Source: an uncultured Candidatus Pelagibacter sp. (GTDB taxonomy: Bacteria > Pseudomonadota > Alphaproteobacteria > Pelagibacterales > Pelagibacteraceae). From it: a stretch of 64,000 bases of DNA. The position numbers were made by a program, and so were the translations under genes. The stretch is taken from NCBI GenBank assembly GCA_905612435.1, contig CAJQRZ010000003.1, forward strand, positions 32,001 to 96,000, written 5' to 3'. Under the pieces are notes generated by a model. The model was not told the origin of the DNA. It was given only the letters and a program-made list of their open reading frames with translations, and made no database searches. Within the stretch, counting starts at the first letter, position 1; each line of letters begins with the position of its first letter. Positions 33,108 to 39,852 of the stretch are shown here, piece after piece.

Positions 33108-34109
33108 ATGAATATAGCAATTGTAGGAGCGACAGGCAATGTTGGGAGAAAAATGCTCGAAGTGCTAGAGCAAAAAAAAATTCCAATTGCTCAGTTATAT
33201 TTGGTTGCATCACCGAGAAGTGTGGGTCAAAAAATAAGTTTTAACGGTAAAGAACATGAAGTTTATAATTTAGAGACATACGATTTCTCTAAAGCCGAAA
33301 TTACCTTTTTTGCAGCAGGTGGCAAAATATCTGAACAATATGGAGAAAAAGCAGCTAAACATTCAACAGTAATTGATAATTCTAGTTTTTTTAGAATGGA
33401 TCCAGATGTTCCTTTAATAGTTCCCCAGGTTAATCCTGAAGCTATTGATGGATTAAAAAAAAATATTATTGCAAATCCAAACTGTTCTACGGCACAATTG
33501 GTTATAACTTTAAAACCTTTGCATGATTTATTTAACATTAAGAGAGTTGTATTATCAACTTACCAATCAGTATCAGGAGGTGGCAAGGCACAAATGAATG
33601 AACTTATTGAACAAACAAAATTATCTTTGAACAAAAAAGAAATTAGTCCTAAAAATTTTACTAAGCAAATAGCATTTAATGCAATTCCTCATATAGATGT
33701 ATTTGCCGAAGATGGTTACACAAAAGAAGAATTAAAAATGGTTAATGAAACTAAAAAAATTATTGATAATAAAATTGAATTAACAGCAACATGCGTAAGA
33801 GTTCCTGTTTTAGTTTCTCATGCTGAATCGGTAAATATTGAATTTGAAAAACCTTTTACTTTAAAAAAAATACATTCTTCATTGAATAGCGCAGATGGAT
33901 GTGAGGTATATGACAAAAGAGAAGATGGCGGTTATATAACACCTTTGGATGCAGAAGGTAAAAATAAAACATACATCTCAAGAATTAGAGAAGATAAAAC
34001 AAAAAAGAATGCACTAAACCTTTGGATAGTTTCAGATAATTTATTAAGAGGTGCTGCTTTGAATGCAGTTGAAATAGCTGAACTATTAATTAAAAAAAAT
34101 AATGGATAA
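33108..34109 (+). CDS. asd: Aspartate-semialdehyde dehydrogenase
   Basis: Protein of 333 residues: G-A-T-G-N-V-G-R nucleotide loop at residue 7, the catalytic cysteine in A-N-P-N-C-S-T-A near 128, Y-Q-S-V-S-G-G-G-K near 151, and R-V-P-V-L-V-S-H-A-E near 244. It makes aspartate semialdehyde for lysine, diaminopimelate, threonine and methionine. It lies 20 bases after dmdA and overlaps sdhC by eight bases, so it may bridge the two transcripts. Confidence 0.96.
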   Translation: MNIAIVGATGNVGRKMLEVLEQKKIPIAQLYLVASPRSVGQKISFNGKEHEVYNLETYDFSKAEITFFAAGGKISEQYGEKAAKHSTVIDNSSFFRMDPDVPLIVPQVNPEAIDGLKKNIIANPNCSTAQLVITLKPLHDLFNIKRVVLSTYQSVSGGGKAQMNELIEQTKLSLNKKEISPKNFTKQIAFNAIPHIDVFAEDGYTKEELKMVNETKKIIDNKIELTATCVRVPVLVSHAESVNIEFEKPFTLKKIHSSLNSADGCEVYDKREDGGYITPLDAEGKNKTYISRIREDKTKKNALNLWIVSDNLLRGAALNAVEIAELLIKKNNG

Positions 34110-34485
34110 TAATAATCCTTTATCACCACATATTCAGATTTATAGATGGCACATATCTTCCTTGGTCTCTATTTCGCATAGAATTACAGGAATAATAAAT
34201 ATAGCTGCCATAACAGTAATTTGTTTTTGGATAGCTTCTTTATTGCTAGGTGAAACTAGTTACGAATTTACTAAAATATTTTTAAATTCTATTTTTGGAA
34301 AATTTGTAATTTTAGGATTAACATGGTCATTTAGTTTTCAAATATTAAGCGAAATAAGACATTTAATTATGGACCTAGGATATGGTTTTGAATTAAAGAT
34401 AACAAAAATAACAGGATTAATAGTGATCATTGGATCATTCGTTTTAACAGTTTTAATTTATTTATTGGGAAAGCAAATTATTTAA
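34102..34485 (+). CDS. sdhC: Succinate dehydrogenase cytochrome b556 subunit (SdhC), heme ligand missing
   Basis: Protein of 127 residues with three membrane helices. The N-terminal R-P-like P-L-S-P-H-I-Q-I-Y and S-I-S-H-R-I-T-G-I (Ser23 and Arg27, equivalent to quinone-site Ser and Arg of E. coli SdhC) are present, as is I-R-H-L-I-M-D-L-G-Y. The axial heme histidine, seven residues before that R-H histidine in E. coli (His84), is glutamine here (Gln80). Operon sdhCDAB; overlaps asd at its start, one base from sdhD. Confidence 0.92.
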   Translation: MDNNNPLSPHIQIYRWHISSLVSISHRITGIINIAAITVICFWIASLLLGETSYEFTKIFLNSIFGKFVILGLTWSFSFQILSEIRHLIMDLGYGFELKITKITGLIVIIGSFVLTVLIYLLGKQII

Positions 34486-34486
34486 T

Positions 34487-34816
34487 ATGAATAATGTAAC
34501 TAAAAAATGGTTATTTTTAAAAGCTAGCTCAGTGGTGTTAATACCATTAATGATTTGGTTTATTTTAAGTTTAATTTCTGTTTTTGATAAAGATTATATT
34601 GATGTTGTTAGATTTTTTTCAACCCAACCATCAAAATTTTTAGTTTCATTATTGCTAGTTTTTGCTTACTTTTTCTCAGCTTTAAGCATTAATGAGGTAT
34701 TTGAAGATTATATTCAGGACAAAAAAATCAAAAATGTCGCAAACAAAGCTTTATATATATTTGCTATAATAATGCCTTTAACAACAATTATAATTATATT
34801 TAATTTAACCACATGA
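34487..34816 (+). CDS. sdhD: Succinate dehydrogenase hydrophobic anchor subunit (SdhD), no histidine
   Basis: Protein of 109 residues with three membrane helices. The conserved E-D-Y-I (Asp74 and Tyr75, the quinone-site pair) fixes the alignment. The heme-ligating histidine expected 11 residues before the aspartate (E. coli His71) is Phe63. The whole protein contains no histidine. Anchors SdhAB and forms the quinone site. Overlaps sdhA by four bases (ATGA). Confidence 0.88.
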
Positions 34817-36588
34817 GTGCTTATAAAATTATAGATCACAAATACGATGTAATCGTTCTTGGAGCAGGTGGTTCTGGATTGAGAGCAGCTGTTGGTTTAA
34901 GCGAAGCAGGCTTAAAAACTGCATGCATATCAAAAGTATTTCCAACAAGAAGCCATACATCTGCAGCACAAGGTGGAATTTCAGCTGCACTTGGAAACAT
35001 GGGTGAAGACGATTGGCGTTGGCACATGTATGATACTGTTAAAGGCGCAGATTGGTTAGGTGATCAAGATAGTATCGAATATTTATGTAAAGAAGCCCCA
35101 AAAGCAGTAATAGAACTAGAAAAATATGGAGTTCCTTTCAGTCGAACAGATGAAGGAAAAATTTATCAAAGGCCTTTTGGAGGAATGACAAAAAATTATG
35201 GAAAAGAAATTGTTCAAAGAACCTGTGCGGCTGCAGACCGAACAGGCCATGCAATACTTCACACTCTTTATGGACAAGCTGTAAAACATAATACAGAATT
35301 TTTCATTGAATACTTCGCCTTAGATTTGTTAATGAAAGATGGGGCGTGTAAAGGTCTCATAGCTTGGAACTTAAATGATGGGACCATTCATAGATTTAGG
35401 GCTCATAGTACAATAATTGCCACAGGTGGTTATGGTAAAGTTTATTATTCCGCAACTTCAGCACATACTTGTACTGGAGATGGAAATGCAATGATTTTAA
35501 GAGCAGGCTTACCATTACAGGATATGGAATTTGTTCAATTTCACCCAACTGGAATTTATGGTCATGGGACACTAATTTCCGAAGGAGTTAGAGGAGAAGG
35601 TGGGTATTTAGTAAATTCAAAAGGTGAAAGATTTATGGAACGATATGCTCCAAGCGCTAAAGATTTAGCATCAAGAGATGTAGTAAGTAGATCGATGTCA
35701 ATTGAAATCAATGAAGGAAGAGGTGTTGGTAAAGATAAAGATCATGTTCACTTGCATTTAAGTCATTTAGATAAAGGCATTATTGAAAGTAGACTTCCAG
35801 GAATTACAGAGGCAGCAAGATTATTTGCAAATGTTGATGTAACTAAAGACCCAATACCCGTAGTCCCTACTGTACATTATAATATGGGAGGTATTCCAAC
35901 AAATTATAAAGCTGAGGTATTAACTGTAAATGGTTCTGAAAAAATAGTTCCAGGATTAATGGCAATTGGAGAAGCGGCTTGCGTTTCTGTACATGGTGCA
36001 AATAGACTTGGGTCAAATTCTTTGATTGATTTAGTGGTATTTGGAAGGGCAGCAGCCAAGAGAGCTGCAGAGCTTGTAAAACCAGGGACTCCACATGAAC
36101 ATATAGAAGAGCTCGAAACAGAAAAATGTTTAGAAAGATTTGATAAATTAAGAAATGCAAACGGTGAAAATAGTACTGCAGAACTTAGGCTTGCAATGCA
36201 AAAAATTATGCAATCGAAGTGTGCAGTTTTTAGGACAGAAAAAACACTTAAAGAAGGTATTGATGAAATTAAAAAAACTTATGATGACATGGATTCAATT
36301 GCAGTAAAAGATAAATCTCTTATTTTTAATACTGATTTAGTTGAAACATTAGAATTTGATAATTTAATAAGACAGGCAATTACTACCGTTACTTCAGCAT
36401 ATAGCAGAAAAGAGAGTAGAGGGGCTCATGCTAGGGAAGATTTCCCAAAAAGAGATGATGAAAATTTTATGCAACATACTGTTGTATGGTGTAATGGAAA
36501 AGATACTAAGATTAGCTATAGACCAGTTCACAAAACAACATTAACAAATGAAGTTCAATATTTTCCACCACAAGAAAGAGTTTATTAA
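34813..36588 (+). CDS. sdhA: Succinate dehydrogenase flavoprotein subunit
   Basis: Protein of 591 residues: G-A-G-G-S-G-L-R-A for FAD, the covalent FAD histidine in [10 protein letters not shown] near residue 45, F-H-P-T-G near 244 and [11 protein letters not shown] near 398. It oxidises succinate to fumarate. Its last base is the first base of the sdhB ATG. Confidence 0.98.
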
Positions 36589-37361
36589 TGGTTCAAATAA
36601 ATTTACCTGAAAATTCAAAAGTTCAAAAAGGTAATTATTACGAAGATAAAACTGGATCAAAAAATATAAGAAAAGTAAACATTTATAGGTGGGACCCGTC
36701 AACTGAAGAAAAACCAAGATTAGATACCTATGAAGTTGATATGGATAACTGTCCATCAAAAGTATTAGATATTTTAAATAAAATTAAAAATGAAATTGAC
36801 TCTTCATTAACTTACCGAAGATCTTGTTCCCACGGTGTTTGTGGTTCTTGTGCAATGAATATGGATGGAAAAAATGGATTAGCATGTACAACACCTCATG
36901 CAGAAATTGATGGTGATATAAACATTTATCCGCTACCTCATTTAAAGGTAAAAAAAGATTTAATTGGTGATTTAAGCGGACTATACAAACAGTATGAATC
37001 AATTGAGCCTTGGTTAAAAACTAATACAAAAGTAGAAACAACAGAAATTATTCAATCAAAAAAAGATAGAGCGAAACTAGATGGTGCTTACGAATGTATA
37101 ATGTGTGCATGTTGTTCAACTTCGTGCCCAAGTTATTGGTGGAATGGTGATAAATTTTTGGGTCCCGCAGTTTTACTACAAGCTTATAGATGGATAGTAG
37201 ACAGTAGAGATGATGAAAGAAAAGAGAGATTAAAAAAAGTTGCTGATGAACTGAAGCTATATAGGTGTCATACTATTATGAATTGTACTAATGCTTGTCC
37301 AAAAGGATTAAATCCAGCAAAAGCTATAGCTGAACTAAAGAAAATGCTTGCAACAAGCTAA
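36588..37361 (+). CDS. sdhB: Succinate dehydrogenase iron-sulfur subunit
   Basis: Protein of 257 residues with all cluster ligands: 2Fe-2S cysteines 80, 85, 88 and 100; 4Fe-4S cysteines 170, 173, 176 and 180; 3Fe-4S cysteines 227, 233 and 237 (with one shared by spacing to the 4Fe-4S set). It carries electrons from FAD to ubiquinone. The soluble half of the complex is therefore intact despite the altered anchors. Confidence 0.98.
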
Positions 37362-38889: not shown

Positions 38890-39852
38890 ATGAAAAAAAT
38901 ATCTTTAATTGGAGCTGGTCAAATAGGTGGAACCTTAGCACATTTAATAGGACTTAAAGAGCTAGCTAATGAGGTCGTACTATTTGATATTGCAAGCGGA
39001 ATAGCAAAAGGAAAGGCTTTAGATATAGCTCAATCTTCATCAATAGATGGCTTTAATGTTAGATTTTTAGGCACAGATAATTATGAAGATATTAAAGACT
39101 CAGATGTAATTATTGTAACAGCAGGTGTTCCAAGAAAACCAGGAATGAGTAGAAATGACTTGTTAGGTATAAATTTAAAAATTATTAAACAAGTAGCAGA
39201 GGGCGTTAAAAAAAATGCACCAAAGGCTTTTGTTATATGTATTACAAACCCGCTAGATGTTATAGTGATGGCATTTCAAAAATATTCTGGATTACCTACA
39301 AATAAAGTTGTTGGTATGGCTGGAATTTTAGATAGCTCAAGATTTAAATTATTTTTATCATTAGAATTAAATGTCCCAGTAAAAGAAATAGAAGCAATAG
39401 TAATGGGTGGTCATGGAGATACGATGGTACCTTTGCCAAGATTTACAAAAGTTTCAGGTAAATCATTATTGGAATTAGTAAAAGAAGGAAAAATATCTTC
39501 TGAAAAATTAGAAAGCATCAACCAAAGGACAAGAGATGGTGGTGCAGAAATTGTTAAGTATCTAGAAAAGGGTTCTGCATTTTACGCTCCTGCAGCATCA
39601 GGTGTTGAAATGGCCAAAGCATATTTAAATGATGAAAAAAAAATATTACCGTGTGCCGTTTATCTTGATGGAGAATATGGAGTAAATAATATTTATGCTG
39701 GTGTTCCAGTACTAATTGGTAAGAGTGGAGTAGAAGAAATAGAAGAAGTAGATTTAGATGAAAAAGAAAAAAAAAATTTTATGAATTCAATCGATGCAGT
39801 TAAAAAATTATGGGAAGCTGCTTCAGTAATTGATACAGATCTTTCTAAATAA
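38890..39852 (+). CDS. mdh: Malate dehydrogenase
   Basis: Protein of 320 residues of the lactate dehydrogenase-like malate dehydrogenase type: G-A-G-Q-I-G-G near residue 8, an aspartate in L-F-D-I-A for NAD preference, R-K-P-G-M-S-R-N-D with the malate-specific arginines, and the catalytic histidine in G-G-H-G-D-T-M-V. It oxidises malate to oxaloacetate. Three bases separate it from sucC. Confidence 0.96.

What the first reader, a model, noticed from the sequence alone, without database searches (positions are those of the whole stretch)
34102..34816. Succinate dehydrogenase anchors lack both canonical heme b histidines
Aligned on the R-H-L-I-M-D motif, SdhC has Gln80 where E. coli has axial ligand His84. 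Aligned on the conserved D-Y pair, SdhD has Phe63 where E. coli has His71, and SdhD contains no histidine at all. Quinone-site residues (SdhC Ser23 and Arg27; SdhD Asp74 and Tyr75) and all SdhB iron-sulfur cysteines are kept. The complex may work without heme b, one iron atom saved per enzyme in an iron-poor ocean.
Basis: partly seen in the sequence, partly recalled or inferred. Interest (0 to 1): 0.68.

Follow-up and report, generated by a model that had tools for sequence, protein, structure and literature searches.

The report
Heme-free succinate dehydrogenase in ocean bacteria
The succinate dehydrogenase of the ocean bacterium Pelagibacter has lost both amino acids that hold its heme and gained a charged residue where the heme's acid arms would sit, so this central enzyme most likely works without heme, much as the yeast enzyme was recently shown to do.

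Summary
The window is from a Pelagibacter (SAR11) genome. SdhC has Gln80 at E. coli His84, SdhD has Phe63 at His71, and SdhD has no His or Cys. Quinone-site residues and the FeS cysteines are kept. It is clade-wide: of 111 Pelagibacter-type loci, 108 lack both ligands, 3 keep one, none keeps both; 124 of 131 other alphaproteobacterial loci keep both. The glycine four residues after each ligand is also replaced, SdhC Gly88 by Glu in 117 of 117 double-loss Pelagibacterales rows. On an SdhA tree, SdhD His and SdhC Gly88 changed first, SdhC His84 later, twice. Yeast complex II, shown heme-free by cryo-EM in 2026, uses the same device (Gly+4 to Glu in place of a heme propionate) in the other subunit. 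Among other Alphaproteobacteria a +4 Glu is found in 6 of 7 loci that lost an axial His, against 2 of 124 with both. Best reading: a heme-free type C complex II. Iron saving as the cause is possible but not shown; heme is still made. No biochemistry could be done. New variant of a known kind.

The parts
34102..34485 (+). sdhC, large membrane anchor of succinate dehydrogenase (127 aa)
   Evidence: TIGR02970 119.7 bits over cut-off 52.3, PF01127 95.9 over 25.8; model folds like E. coli SdhC, Foldseek E 2.6e-5
34487..34816 (+). sdhD, small membrane anchor (109 aa), no His and no Cys
   Evidence: TIGR02968 51.0 bits over cut-off 41.8, PF01127 26.4 over 25.8; composition; model nearest to SdhD-type chains but the best Foldseek E is only 0.056
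34813..36588 (+). sdhA, flavoprotein subunit
   Evidence: TIGR01816 962.3 bits
36588..37361 (+). sdhB, iron-sulfur subunit; 11 of its 13 Cys fit the cluster spacing, Cys227-His228 kept
   Evidence: NF004616 354.6 bits; cysteines listed
34339..34341 (+). SdhC codon 80 (CAA, Gln) in place of the axial His84 of E. coli
   Evidence: H in 51 of 51 strong alphaproteobacterial rows and 20 of 20 early-branching Pelagibacterales rows
34351..34353 (+). SdhC codon 84 (GAA, Glu) in place of conserved Gly88 (axial His + 4)
   Evidence: E in 117 of 117 double-loss Pelagibacterales rows; G in 51 of 51 and 20 of 20 comparison rows; codon
34673..34675 (+). SdhD codon 63 (TTC, Phe) in place of the axial His71 of E. 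coli
   Evidence: derived F 101, Y 14, N 2 of 117; H in 51 of 51 and 20 of 20 comparison rows
34685..34687 (+). SdhD codon 67 (Ser) in place of Gly75 (axial His + 4)
   Evidence: derived S 91, T 22, N 2, G 1, A 1 of 117; but Ser also in 6 of 20 early-branching rows that keep both His
34520..34522 (+). SdhD Lys12, at E. coli Arg20 (distal heme-propionate residue)
   Evidence: K in 114 of 117 derived rows, R in 50 of 51 strong alphaproteobacterial rows; propionate role from PMC3290573
34168..34182 (+). SdhC Ser23, His26, Arg27: quinone-site / propionate-side residues, kept
   Evidence: S and R invariant, H26 in 117 of 119 derived rows
34694..34711 (+). SdhD Glu70 (E. coli Gln78) and Asp74-Tyr75 (quinone site), kept
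   Evidence: E70 in 117 of 117 derived and 20 of 20 early-branching rows; D and Y invariant

Best explanation
This is a four-subunit type C succinate:ubiquinone oxidoreductase that has lost heme b. Electrons go from FAD through the three iron-sulfur clusters of SdhB straight to ubiquinone at the intact quinone site. Heme b is off that path in E. coli (published), so it can be dispensed with. The structural work of the heme, which cross-links SdhC and SdhD, is taken over by protein: the ligand positions become Gln80 and Phe/Tyr63, the glycines one turn on become larger (SdhC Gly88 to Glu84, SdhD Gly75 to Ser/Thr67), and Glu84 is inferred to stand in for a heme propionate by pairing with the basic residue that held it (SdhD Lys12 = E. 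coli Arg20; His87 = SdhC His91 is nearby). Yeast has the pseudo-two-fold mirror image: a Glu at SdhD position +4 paired with the SdhC arginine. Shown here: residue losses, clade-wide distribution, co-occurrence of Glu88 with the losses, order on a tree. Inferred: absence of heme, the Glu84-Lys12 contact, retained activity.
For: (1) Both axial ligands absent in 108 of 111 Pelagibacter-type rows, none of 111 with both. (2) Specificity: of the SdhC columns fixed in 51 strong alphaproteobacterial rows and 20 early-branching Pelagibacterales rows, His84 and Gly88 are lost while S27, R31, H91, D95 and the SPH motif stay (Trp129 and, in 80%, Trp94 also change); in SdhD His71 is lost while D82-Y83 stay, and pocket positions 19 and 23 (within 5 A of the heme in E. 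coli) change as well. (3) SdhD offers no alternative ligand: 0 His in 106 of 117 derived rows; the other 11 have one, away from the ligand position. (4) Order on an SdhA tree: ligands intact in most early branches, SdhD loss plus Gly88Glu first, His84Gln later in two places, one starred at 97 ('quick' tree). (5) In Pelagibacteraceae rows Glu88 goes with a basic residue at SdhD 20 (Lys 125, Arg 3), Gly88 with Arg (19), Gly88 with Lys 0. (6) Yeast complex II: no heme in cryo-EM, Tyr for the SdhD-side His, Glu112 replacing the +4 Gly and bridging Arg97 in place of a propionate (PMC13066397, passages). (7) An E. coli heme-free variant is active and supports growth on succinate; E. coli Frd lacks heme (PMC3290573, introduction); SdhD Arg20 and SdhC Arg31 are pseudo-symmetric propionate holders (passage). 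(8) Other Alphaproteobacteria: +4 Glu in 6 of 7 rows with a lost axial His, 2 of 124 with both.
Against: No spectrum, structure or assay. SdhC His26 (E. [quoted passage not shown] coli (reference list seen), and SdhC His84Met and SdhD His71Met structures exist (titles), so one lost ligand need not mean heme loss. SdhD Lys20 also occurs with both His intact (2 f2 g3 rows; 5 of 124 other alphaproteobacterial rows), and SdhD Ser75 in 6 of 20 early-branching rows with both His, so neither is diagnostic. Two of 124 other alphaproteobacterial rows with both His have a +4 Glu (L178, L314). Many other SdhD columns differ from other Alphaproteobacteria, several already in early-branching rows. I could not model the SdhC-SdhD pair, so the Glu84-Lys12 contact is untested. 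Within Pelagibacterales the association rests on few events (2 independent pairs on supported branches, no significance).
Confidence: 0.82

Rival explanations
1. Heme b is still bound, but with other ligands: SdhC His26 (E. coli His30) or the newly common His17, or Gln80, possibly as a high-spin or weakly held heme.
For: His26 kept in 117 of 119 derived rows; His17 in 98%; a paper title reports heme retention in E. coli axial-ligand mutants (reference list) and ligand-mutant structures exist (titles).
Against: His26 is equally fixed where both ligands are present and lies beside the Q-site Ser/Arg, so its conservation needs no ligand role; two relatives without axial ligands have Thr or Gln there (L006, L145). 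His17 is near the start of the first long helix (H9-49), six residues before Ser23, an unlikely reach for mid-membrane iron (inference), and it is present in 9 Pelagibacterales rows that keep His84. The glycines at ligand+4 are replaced by larger residues in both subunits.
Confidence: 0.1
2. The anchors are heme-free, and the driver is iron economy in the iron-poor open ocean.
Against: HIMB114 is listed as coastal tropical and IMCC9063 as ocean, arctic; genus groups g271, g274, g276 keep both His; the enzyme would still contain nine cluster irons; ferrochelatase in 12 of 13 and cytochrome b in 13 of 13 genomes searched (the miss is a 68% complete genome); axial losses in other small-genome Alphaproteobacteria. 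General streamlining or neutral loss explains the same facts.
Confidence: 0.25
3. Neutral decay: heme b became dispensable by chance and the substitutions are drift without a compensating structure.
For: The SdhD ligand position drifts among F, Y and N, and two genomes (L215, L216) have a His there.
Against: SdhC Glu88 is present in 117 of 117 double-loss Pelagibacterales rows, and a Gly-to-Glu change at a +4 position recurs in yeast and with axial loss in five other alphaproteobacterial families, which looks like replacement rather than decay.
Confidence: 0.12
4. Not a heme site at all: misalignment, frameshift, or a divergent paralogue while a canonical copy sits elsewhere.
For: SdhD is divergent: only 0.6 bits over the Pfam cut-off (26.4 against 25.8) and no PDB hit by phmmer; the genome is 71.5% complete.
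Against: Only two Sdh_cyt matches in the genome, these two genes; the alignment around both ligands is gapless and anchored by RH..D and DY; the same pattern occurs in single-contig genomes such as the HIMB5-sized G012.
Confidence: 0.01

Closest known systems
Saccharomyces cerevisiae complex II (heme-free type C; PMC13066397; structures such as 9qdl/9qdm, titles)
   Same: Type C anchors with intact Q site, an axial His lost, Gly at ligand+4 replaced by Glu that substitutes for a heme propionate.
   Different: Yeast lost only the SdhD-side His (Tyr108) and put the Glu in SdhD (Sdh4); Pelagibacter lost both ligands and put the Glu in SdhC. Yeast is structurally proven, this is not.
E. coli SdhCDAB (type C, PDB 1nek)
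   Same: Gene order CDAB (recalled for E. coli), family, fold, Q-site residues SdhC Ser27/Arg31, SdhD Asp82/Tyr83, FeS cysteines.
   Different: E. coli has His84/His71 with heme b, Gly88/Gly75 and SdhD Arg20.
Type D quinol:fumarate reductase (E. coli FrdABCD)
   Same: Membrane anchors without heme.
   Different: FrdC/FrdD are other sequence families (recalled); the Pelagibacter anchors pass the cut-offs of SdhC/SdhD models.
Tetrahymena and Perkinsus complex II
   Same: Reported to lack the membrane heme (PMC13066397, passage).
   Different: Divergent protist anchors inside supercomplexes; not compared by sequence here.
Engineered heme-free E. coli Sdh variant (Tran et al. 2007; paper not held, cited through PMC3290573 and PMC13066397)
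   Same: Shows the type C enzyme works without heme b.
   Different: Laboratory mutant with decreased catalytic rates; here a natural enzyme with compensating-looking changes.

Membership tests
Type C succinate:quinone oxidoreductase | SdhC and SdhD anchors of the Sdh_cyt / succ_dehyd_cytB / succ_dehyd_anc families beside SdhA and SdhB | tested here: met
   each gene passes a curated cut-off, order C-D-A-B
Type C succinate:quinone oxidoreductase | Two anchors of three transmembrane helices with the SdhC/SdhD fold | tested here: met
   Models of mean pLDDT 84.7 and 88.4. SdhC: Foldseek E 2.6e-5 to E. coli SdhC. SdhD: best hit E. coli SdhD but E 0.056, TM 0.66, so weaker
Type C succinate:quinone oxidoreductase | One heme b held by an axial residue from each anchor | tested here: not met
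   Gln80 and Phe63 in place of His84 and His71. Yeast fails the same test and its authors still class it as type C, so I call this a heme-free variant of type C, not a canonical member
Type C succinate:quinone oxidoreductase | Quinone-site residues SdhC Ser27/Arg31 and SdhD Asp82/Tyr83 | tested here: met
   Invariant in 119 (SdhC) and 117 (SdhD) derived rows
Heme-free type C (yeast kind) | Loss of at least one axial His | tested here: met
   Both lost
Heme-free type C (yeast kind) | Gly at ligand+4 replaced by Glu | tested here: met
   SdhC Glu84, but in the other subunit than in yeast
Heme-free type C (yeast kind) | No heme in the purified enzyme | not testable with these tools
   Needs spectroscopy or cryo-EM
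Type D fumarate reductase | FrdC/FrdD-type anchors | tested here: not met
   Pfam and NCBIfam assign SdhC/SdhD; no FrdC/FrdD family among hits at E up to 0.001

The most novel reading that the evidence does not exclude
Heme loss from type C complex II follows one recurring molecular route: once an axial His goes, a glycine one turn away becomes glutamate, a protein-made stand-in for a heme propionate, in SdhD (yeast, five other alphaproteobacterial families) or, as a mirror image across the pseudo-two-fold, in SdhC (SAR11). Heme-free complex II would then be the normal state in some of the most abundant cells in the ocean, and the +4 Glu together with a lost axial His would predict it from sequence.
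Probability: 0.5. Interest if true: 0.76.

Novelty: new variant of a known kind. Interest (0 to 1): 0.66.

Why it matters
The role of heme b in complex II is an old open question: it is very widely conserved, yet it lies off the electron path and E. coli works without it. SAR11, described as the most abundant heterotrophic bacterioplankton of the oceans (abstract), would be a natural experiment in removing it, with intermediates still alive: relatives with both ligands, with one, and with none. That lets the question be tested by comparing close relatives, some of them cultured. It also adds to the accounting of heme and iron in the streamlined cells of the open ocean, and suggests a simple sequence signature (axial His lost, +4 Gly to Glu) for finding heme-free complex II elsewhere.

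Tried and rejected
Alternative ligand gained in SdhD: rejected; 106 of 117 derived SdhD have no His and the other 11 have one away from the ligand position. Second canonical SDH in the genome: none found in the 71.5% complete assembly. Loss of heme synthesis as cause: rejected, ferrochelatase in 12 of 13 and cytochrome b in 13 of 13 genomes. 'Stops inside' SdhC reported for several early-branching genomes: in the loci fetched the reading frame has about normal SdhC length with its stop at the end, so I took them as the search model running past the gene. SdhD Arg20Lys and SdhD Gly75Ser as markers of heme loss: rejected, both also found with both His. SdhC His17 as the new ligand: not excluded but judged unlikely. 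Independent-pairs test of ligand loss against Gly88 loss: too few pairs (2 on supported branches) for significance. phmmer of SdhD alone against the PDB: only chance hits. Literature searches for a published SAR11 heme-free SDH: searches showed none in the titles and abstract starts listed; the library holds open-licence PMC papers only, and several lists were capped (30 of 742, 20 of 243, 20 of 42, 15 of 69, 12 of 1,728), so this is weak evidence of absence.

Rows dropped and sampling: of 139 other-alphaproteobacterial genomes fetched (19, 20, 40) 8 were left out because SdhC (L181, L186) or SdhD (L153, L155, L219, L224, L240, L307) was not found, leaving 131 rows. They are not a random sample: 59 came from the best-scoring rows, 20 were picked among the weakest-scoring, 60 as small-genome or mid-scoring; 63 of 386 genomes had no match at all. 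Duplicate loci (L001-L003, L032, L046, L187-L196) were dropped. Of 162 family genomes with a match I fetched 39 (19, 20) besides those already held. L198 and L147 lack SdhD. The tree used 77 of 234 available SdhA rows. The named (best 80 of 582) and unnamed Pelagibacter sets may share species. SdhD of L183 scored only 8.5 bits, so its row is weak. The derived set is 119 and 117 from then on, because still held the duplicate L046 and the non-Pelagibacterales L183.
Full report
WHAT IS THERE. The window is part of a Pelagibacter genome (G000, contig C3:32001-96000, 1.107 Mb held, 71.5% complete). The best 80 of 582 matching named records are titled Candidatus Pelagibacter, Pelagibacteraceae or Pelagibacterales, among them strain HTCC9565. 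sdhC (34102-34485), sdhD (34487-34816), sdhA (34813-36588) and sdhB (36588-37361) lie head to tail; each passes a curated family cut-off. These two anchors are the only Sdh_cyt matches in the held genome.

CHECK OF THE OBSERVATION. SdhC residue 80 is Gln, aligned without gaps to His84 of E. coli 1nek_C. SdhD residue 63 is Phe; SdhD has no His and no Cys. In the alignment with E. coli and alphaproteobacterial SdhD, Phe63 stands opposite His71, eleven residues before the invariant Asp-Tyr. A profile of 13 SdhD rows matches 1nek_D gaplessly, but E. coli SdhD was one of its rows; the matches to 6lum_D and human SDHD are the independent ones. Quinone-site residues and the cluster cysteines are kept.

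HOW FAR IT EXTENDS. I read the positions in the window, in relatives found by genome search, in the 80 named loci and in other Alphaproteobacteria. Among 111 Pelagibacter-type rows (31 of the window's genus group g1, 80 named; the two sets may overlap in species) the pair SdhC84/SdhD71 is Q/F in 94, Q/Y in 14, Q/H in 2 and H/F in 1: 108 lack both ligands, none has both. In other Alphaproteobacteria 124 of 131 rows have both His and 118 of 131 have all four of His84, Gly88, His71, Gly75 (sample not random, see Tried and rejected).

SPECIFICITY. In SdhC, His84 and Gly88 are fixed in 51 of 51 strong alphaproteobacterial rows and 20 of 20 early-branching Pelagibacterales rows. In the 117 double-loss Pelagibacterales rows position 84 is Gln (116) or Tyr (1) and position 88 is Glu (117). 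In the same comparison Ser27, Ile28, Arg31, Arg90, His91 and Asp95 stay. Other changes exist (Trp129 to Tyr/Phe; Trp94 to Met in 80%; several hydrophobic positions), so the heme site is not the only thing that moved. In SdhD, His71 (51 of 51, 20 of 20) is replaced by Phe 101, Tyr 14, Asn 2 of 117, and Gly75 (98%; 14 of 20 early-branching rows) by Ser 91, Thr 22, Asn 2, Ala 1. Asp82-Tyr83 stay invariant; Arg20 becomes Lys in 114 of 117; positions 19 and 23, which lie within 5 A of the heme in E. coli (PMC3290573, section 12), go from Gln/His to Leu (104) and from Ala to Ser/Gly (99/13). Many other SdhD columns differ from other Alphaproteobacteria too, several of them already in early-branching rows.

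ORDER OF EVENTS. On an SdhA tree of 77 rows ('quick' IQ-TREE, many branches only moderately supported) genus groups g5, g273 and g279, on the earliest Pelagibacteraceae branch, keep both His and both Gly. They include contigs whose lengths (1,160,202; 1,237,371; 1,284,727) fit Fonsibacter LSUCC0530 (1.16 Mbp, freshwater; PMC6018831, passages) and HIMB114 and IMCC9063 (1237 and 1284 kb, subclade IIIa; PMC3815206, table in passages); G012 at 1,343,202 fits HIMB5 (1343 kb, Ia). These identities rest on size and are not certain. Genus groups g271, g274, g276 also keep both His, with Ser75 in 6 of 10 rows. In g272 (5 of 5), part of g270 (3 of 11 with SdhD) and the named L111, SdhD already has Phe71/Thr75 and SdhC has Glu88, but His84 is still there. 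His84 is Gln in a subclade of g270 (SH-aLRT 97) and in Pelagibacter. So, on this tree, SdhD's ligand and SdhC's glycine went first, SdhC's ligand later and twice. A separate double loss (Tyr84/Asn71, with Glu88) is seen in one genome of g275 (L143), inside the early branch. The second family f2 shows another path: both His in the g3 rows with SdhD (2 of 2), but Tyr84 with His71 in g2 (10 of 10) and g4 (2 of 2). Exceptions told: L199 (g270) has both His, with an SdhCD that looks like that of g271 (my reading of the letters) beside a g270-like SdhA (recombination or a mixed contig), and L215/L216 carry a His at SdhD71.

MECHANISM. In E. coli the heme is not on the path from FAD to quinone; a heme-free variant keeps a significant amount of activity and supports growth on succinate, though rates fall and the heme stabilises the isolated enzyme; Frd lacks heme (PMC3290573, sections 3 and 12 and passages). 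The same paper states that SdhC His91, SdhB His207 and SdhD Arg20 hold the distal propionate, SdhC Arg31 and SdhD Gln78 the proximal one, and that Arg20 and Arg31 are equivalent across the pseudo-two-fold. The 2026 yeast structure has no heme, has Tyr for the SdhD-side His, and has Glu112 in place of a glycine four residues on; this Glu bridges Arg97 of Sdh3 in place of a propionate (PMC13066397, passages). By position Arg97 is E. coli Arg31 (my inference). Pelagibacter has the mirror image: Glu at the +4 glycine of SdhC, with the equivalent basic residue on SdhD (Lys12 = Arg20). In Pelagibacteraceae rows Glu88 occurs with Lys20 (125) or Arg20 (3), Gly88 only with Arg20 (19); but Lys20 also occurs with both His in f2 g3 and in 5 of 124 other alphaproteobacterial rows. 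SdhD Glu70, at the proximal-propionate position Gln78, is present in all 20 early-branching and 117 derived rows and may have prepared the site. I therefore think the enzyme is heme-free, with protein acids in place of the propionates. The contact itself is inferred; only single chains could be modelled. The SdhC model clearly resembles solved SdhC chains; the SdhD model resembles SdhD-type chains but with E-values of 0.056 and above.

A WIDER PATTERN. Among 131 other alphaproteobacterial rows, 7 have lost an axial His; 6 of these have a +4 Glu (L167, L177, L179, L183, L185, L286; five families, since L185 and L286 share a genus; L183 weakly aligned), against 2 of 124 with both His (L178, L314; Fisher p 3e-8, rows not independent). 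In these six the Glu is in SdhD, as in yeast (in L185 and L286 in SdhC as well), and the lost His is in SdhC (in L183 in both). The seventh (L269) has Tyr71, Ser75 and Lys20 in SdhD and keeps His84/Gly88.

RIVALS. Heme kept with other ligands cannot be excluded without a spectrum: SdhC His26 is conserved and His17 is newly common. Iron saving is compatible with the LSUCC0530-sized and IIIa-sized genomes keeping the site, but HIMB114 is listed as coastal and IMCC9063 as ocean, the cells still carry ferrochelatase and cytochrome b, and small-genome Alphaproteobacteria of other families show axial losses. General streamlining or relaxed need is as good an account.

NOVELTY. Heme-free type C complex II is known in yeast and reported for two protists. 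I saw no report of a natural one in SAR11 or another bacterium in the listings (open-licence papers only; several lists capped; titles, abstract starts and some passages seen). I rate it a new variant of a known kind.

Noticed in passing
L035-L045 and L146 (family f2, genera g2 and g4): SdhC has Tyr at the axial position with Cys/Ser at +4 while SdhD keeps His and Gly: the mirror of the yeast His-Tyr pair, so this family may be heme-free by an independent route.
   Followed up: partly
L199 (G561 C25:4500-7500): A g270 genome with both heme ligands intact; its SdhC-SdhD reads like genus g271 while its SdhA groups with g270: recombination of sdhCD or a mixed contig.
   Followed up: partly
L215, L216: Two Pelagibacter genomes have a His at the SdhD axial position (FFHSALT) while SdhC stays Gln/Glu: a reversion or a retained ligand.
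   Followed up: partly
window 34150-34152 (SdhC codon 17): SdhC residue 17 is His in 98% of double-loss rows against 7% of rows with both ligands, mostly Gln otherwise; purpose unknown.
   Followed up: partly
L167, L177, L179, L183, L185, L286: Other small-genome Alphaproteobacteria (five families) with SdhC Tyr/Phe at the axial position and SdhD Glu at +4, the yeast-like signature.
   Followed up: partly
L178, L314: Two alphaproteobacterial rows keep both axial His but have a +4 Glu in SdhD (L178 in SdhC too): either before heme loss or against the rule.
   Followed up: no
L269 (G189, 1.4 Mb genome): SdhD Tyr71/Ser75/Lys20 with SdhC His84/Gly88 intact: a separate SdhD-side loss.
   Followed up: no
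L006, L145: The otherwise nearly fixed SdhC His26 (E. coli His30, touching the heme) is Thr in L006 and Gln in L145, both rows without axial ligands.
   Followed up: no
window 34102-34109: The sdhC start overlaps the end of the upstream ORF (33108-34109, reads like aspartate-semialdehyde dehydrogenase, name recalled) by 8 bases; a malate-dehydrogenase-like ORF (name recalled) starts at 38890.
   Followed up: no
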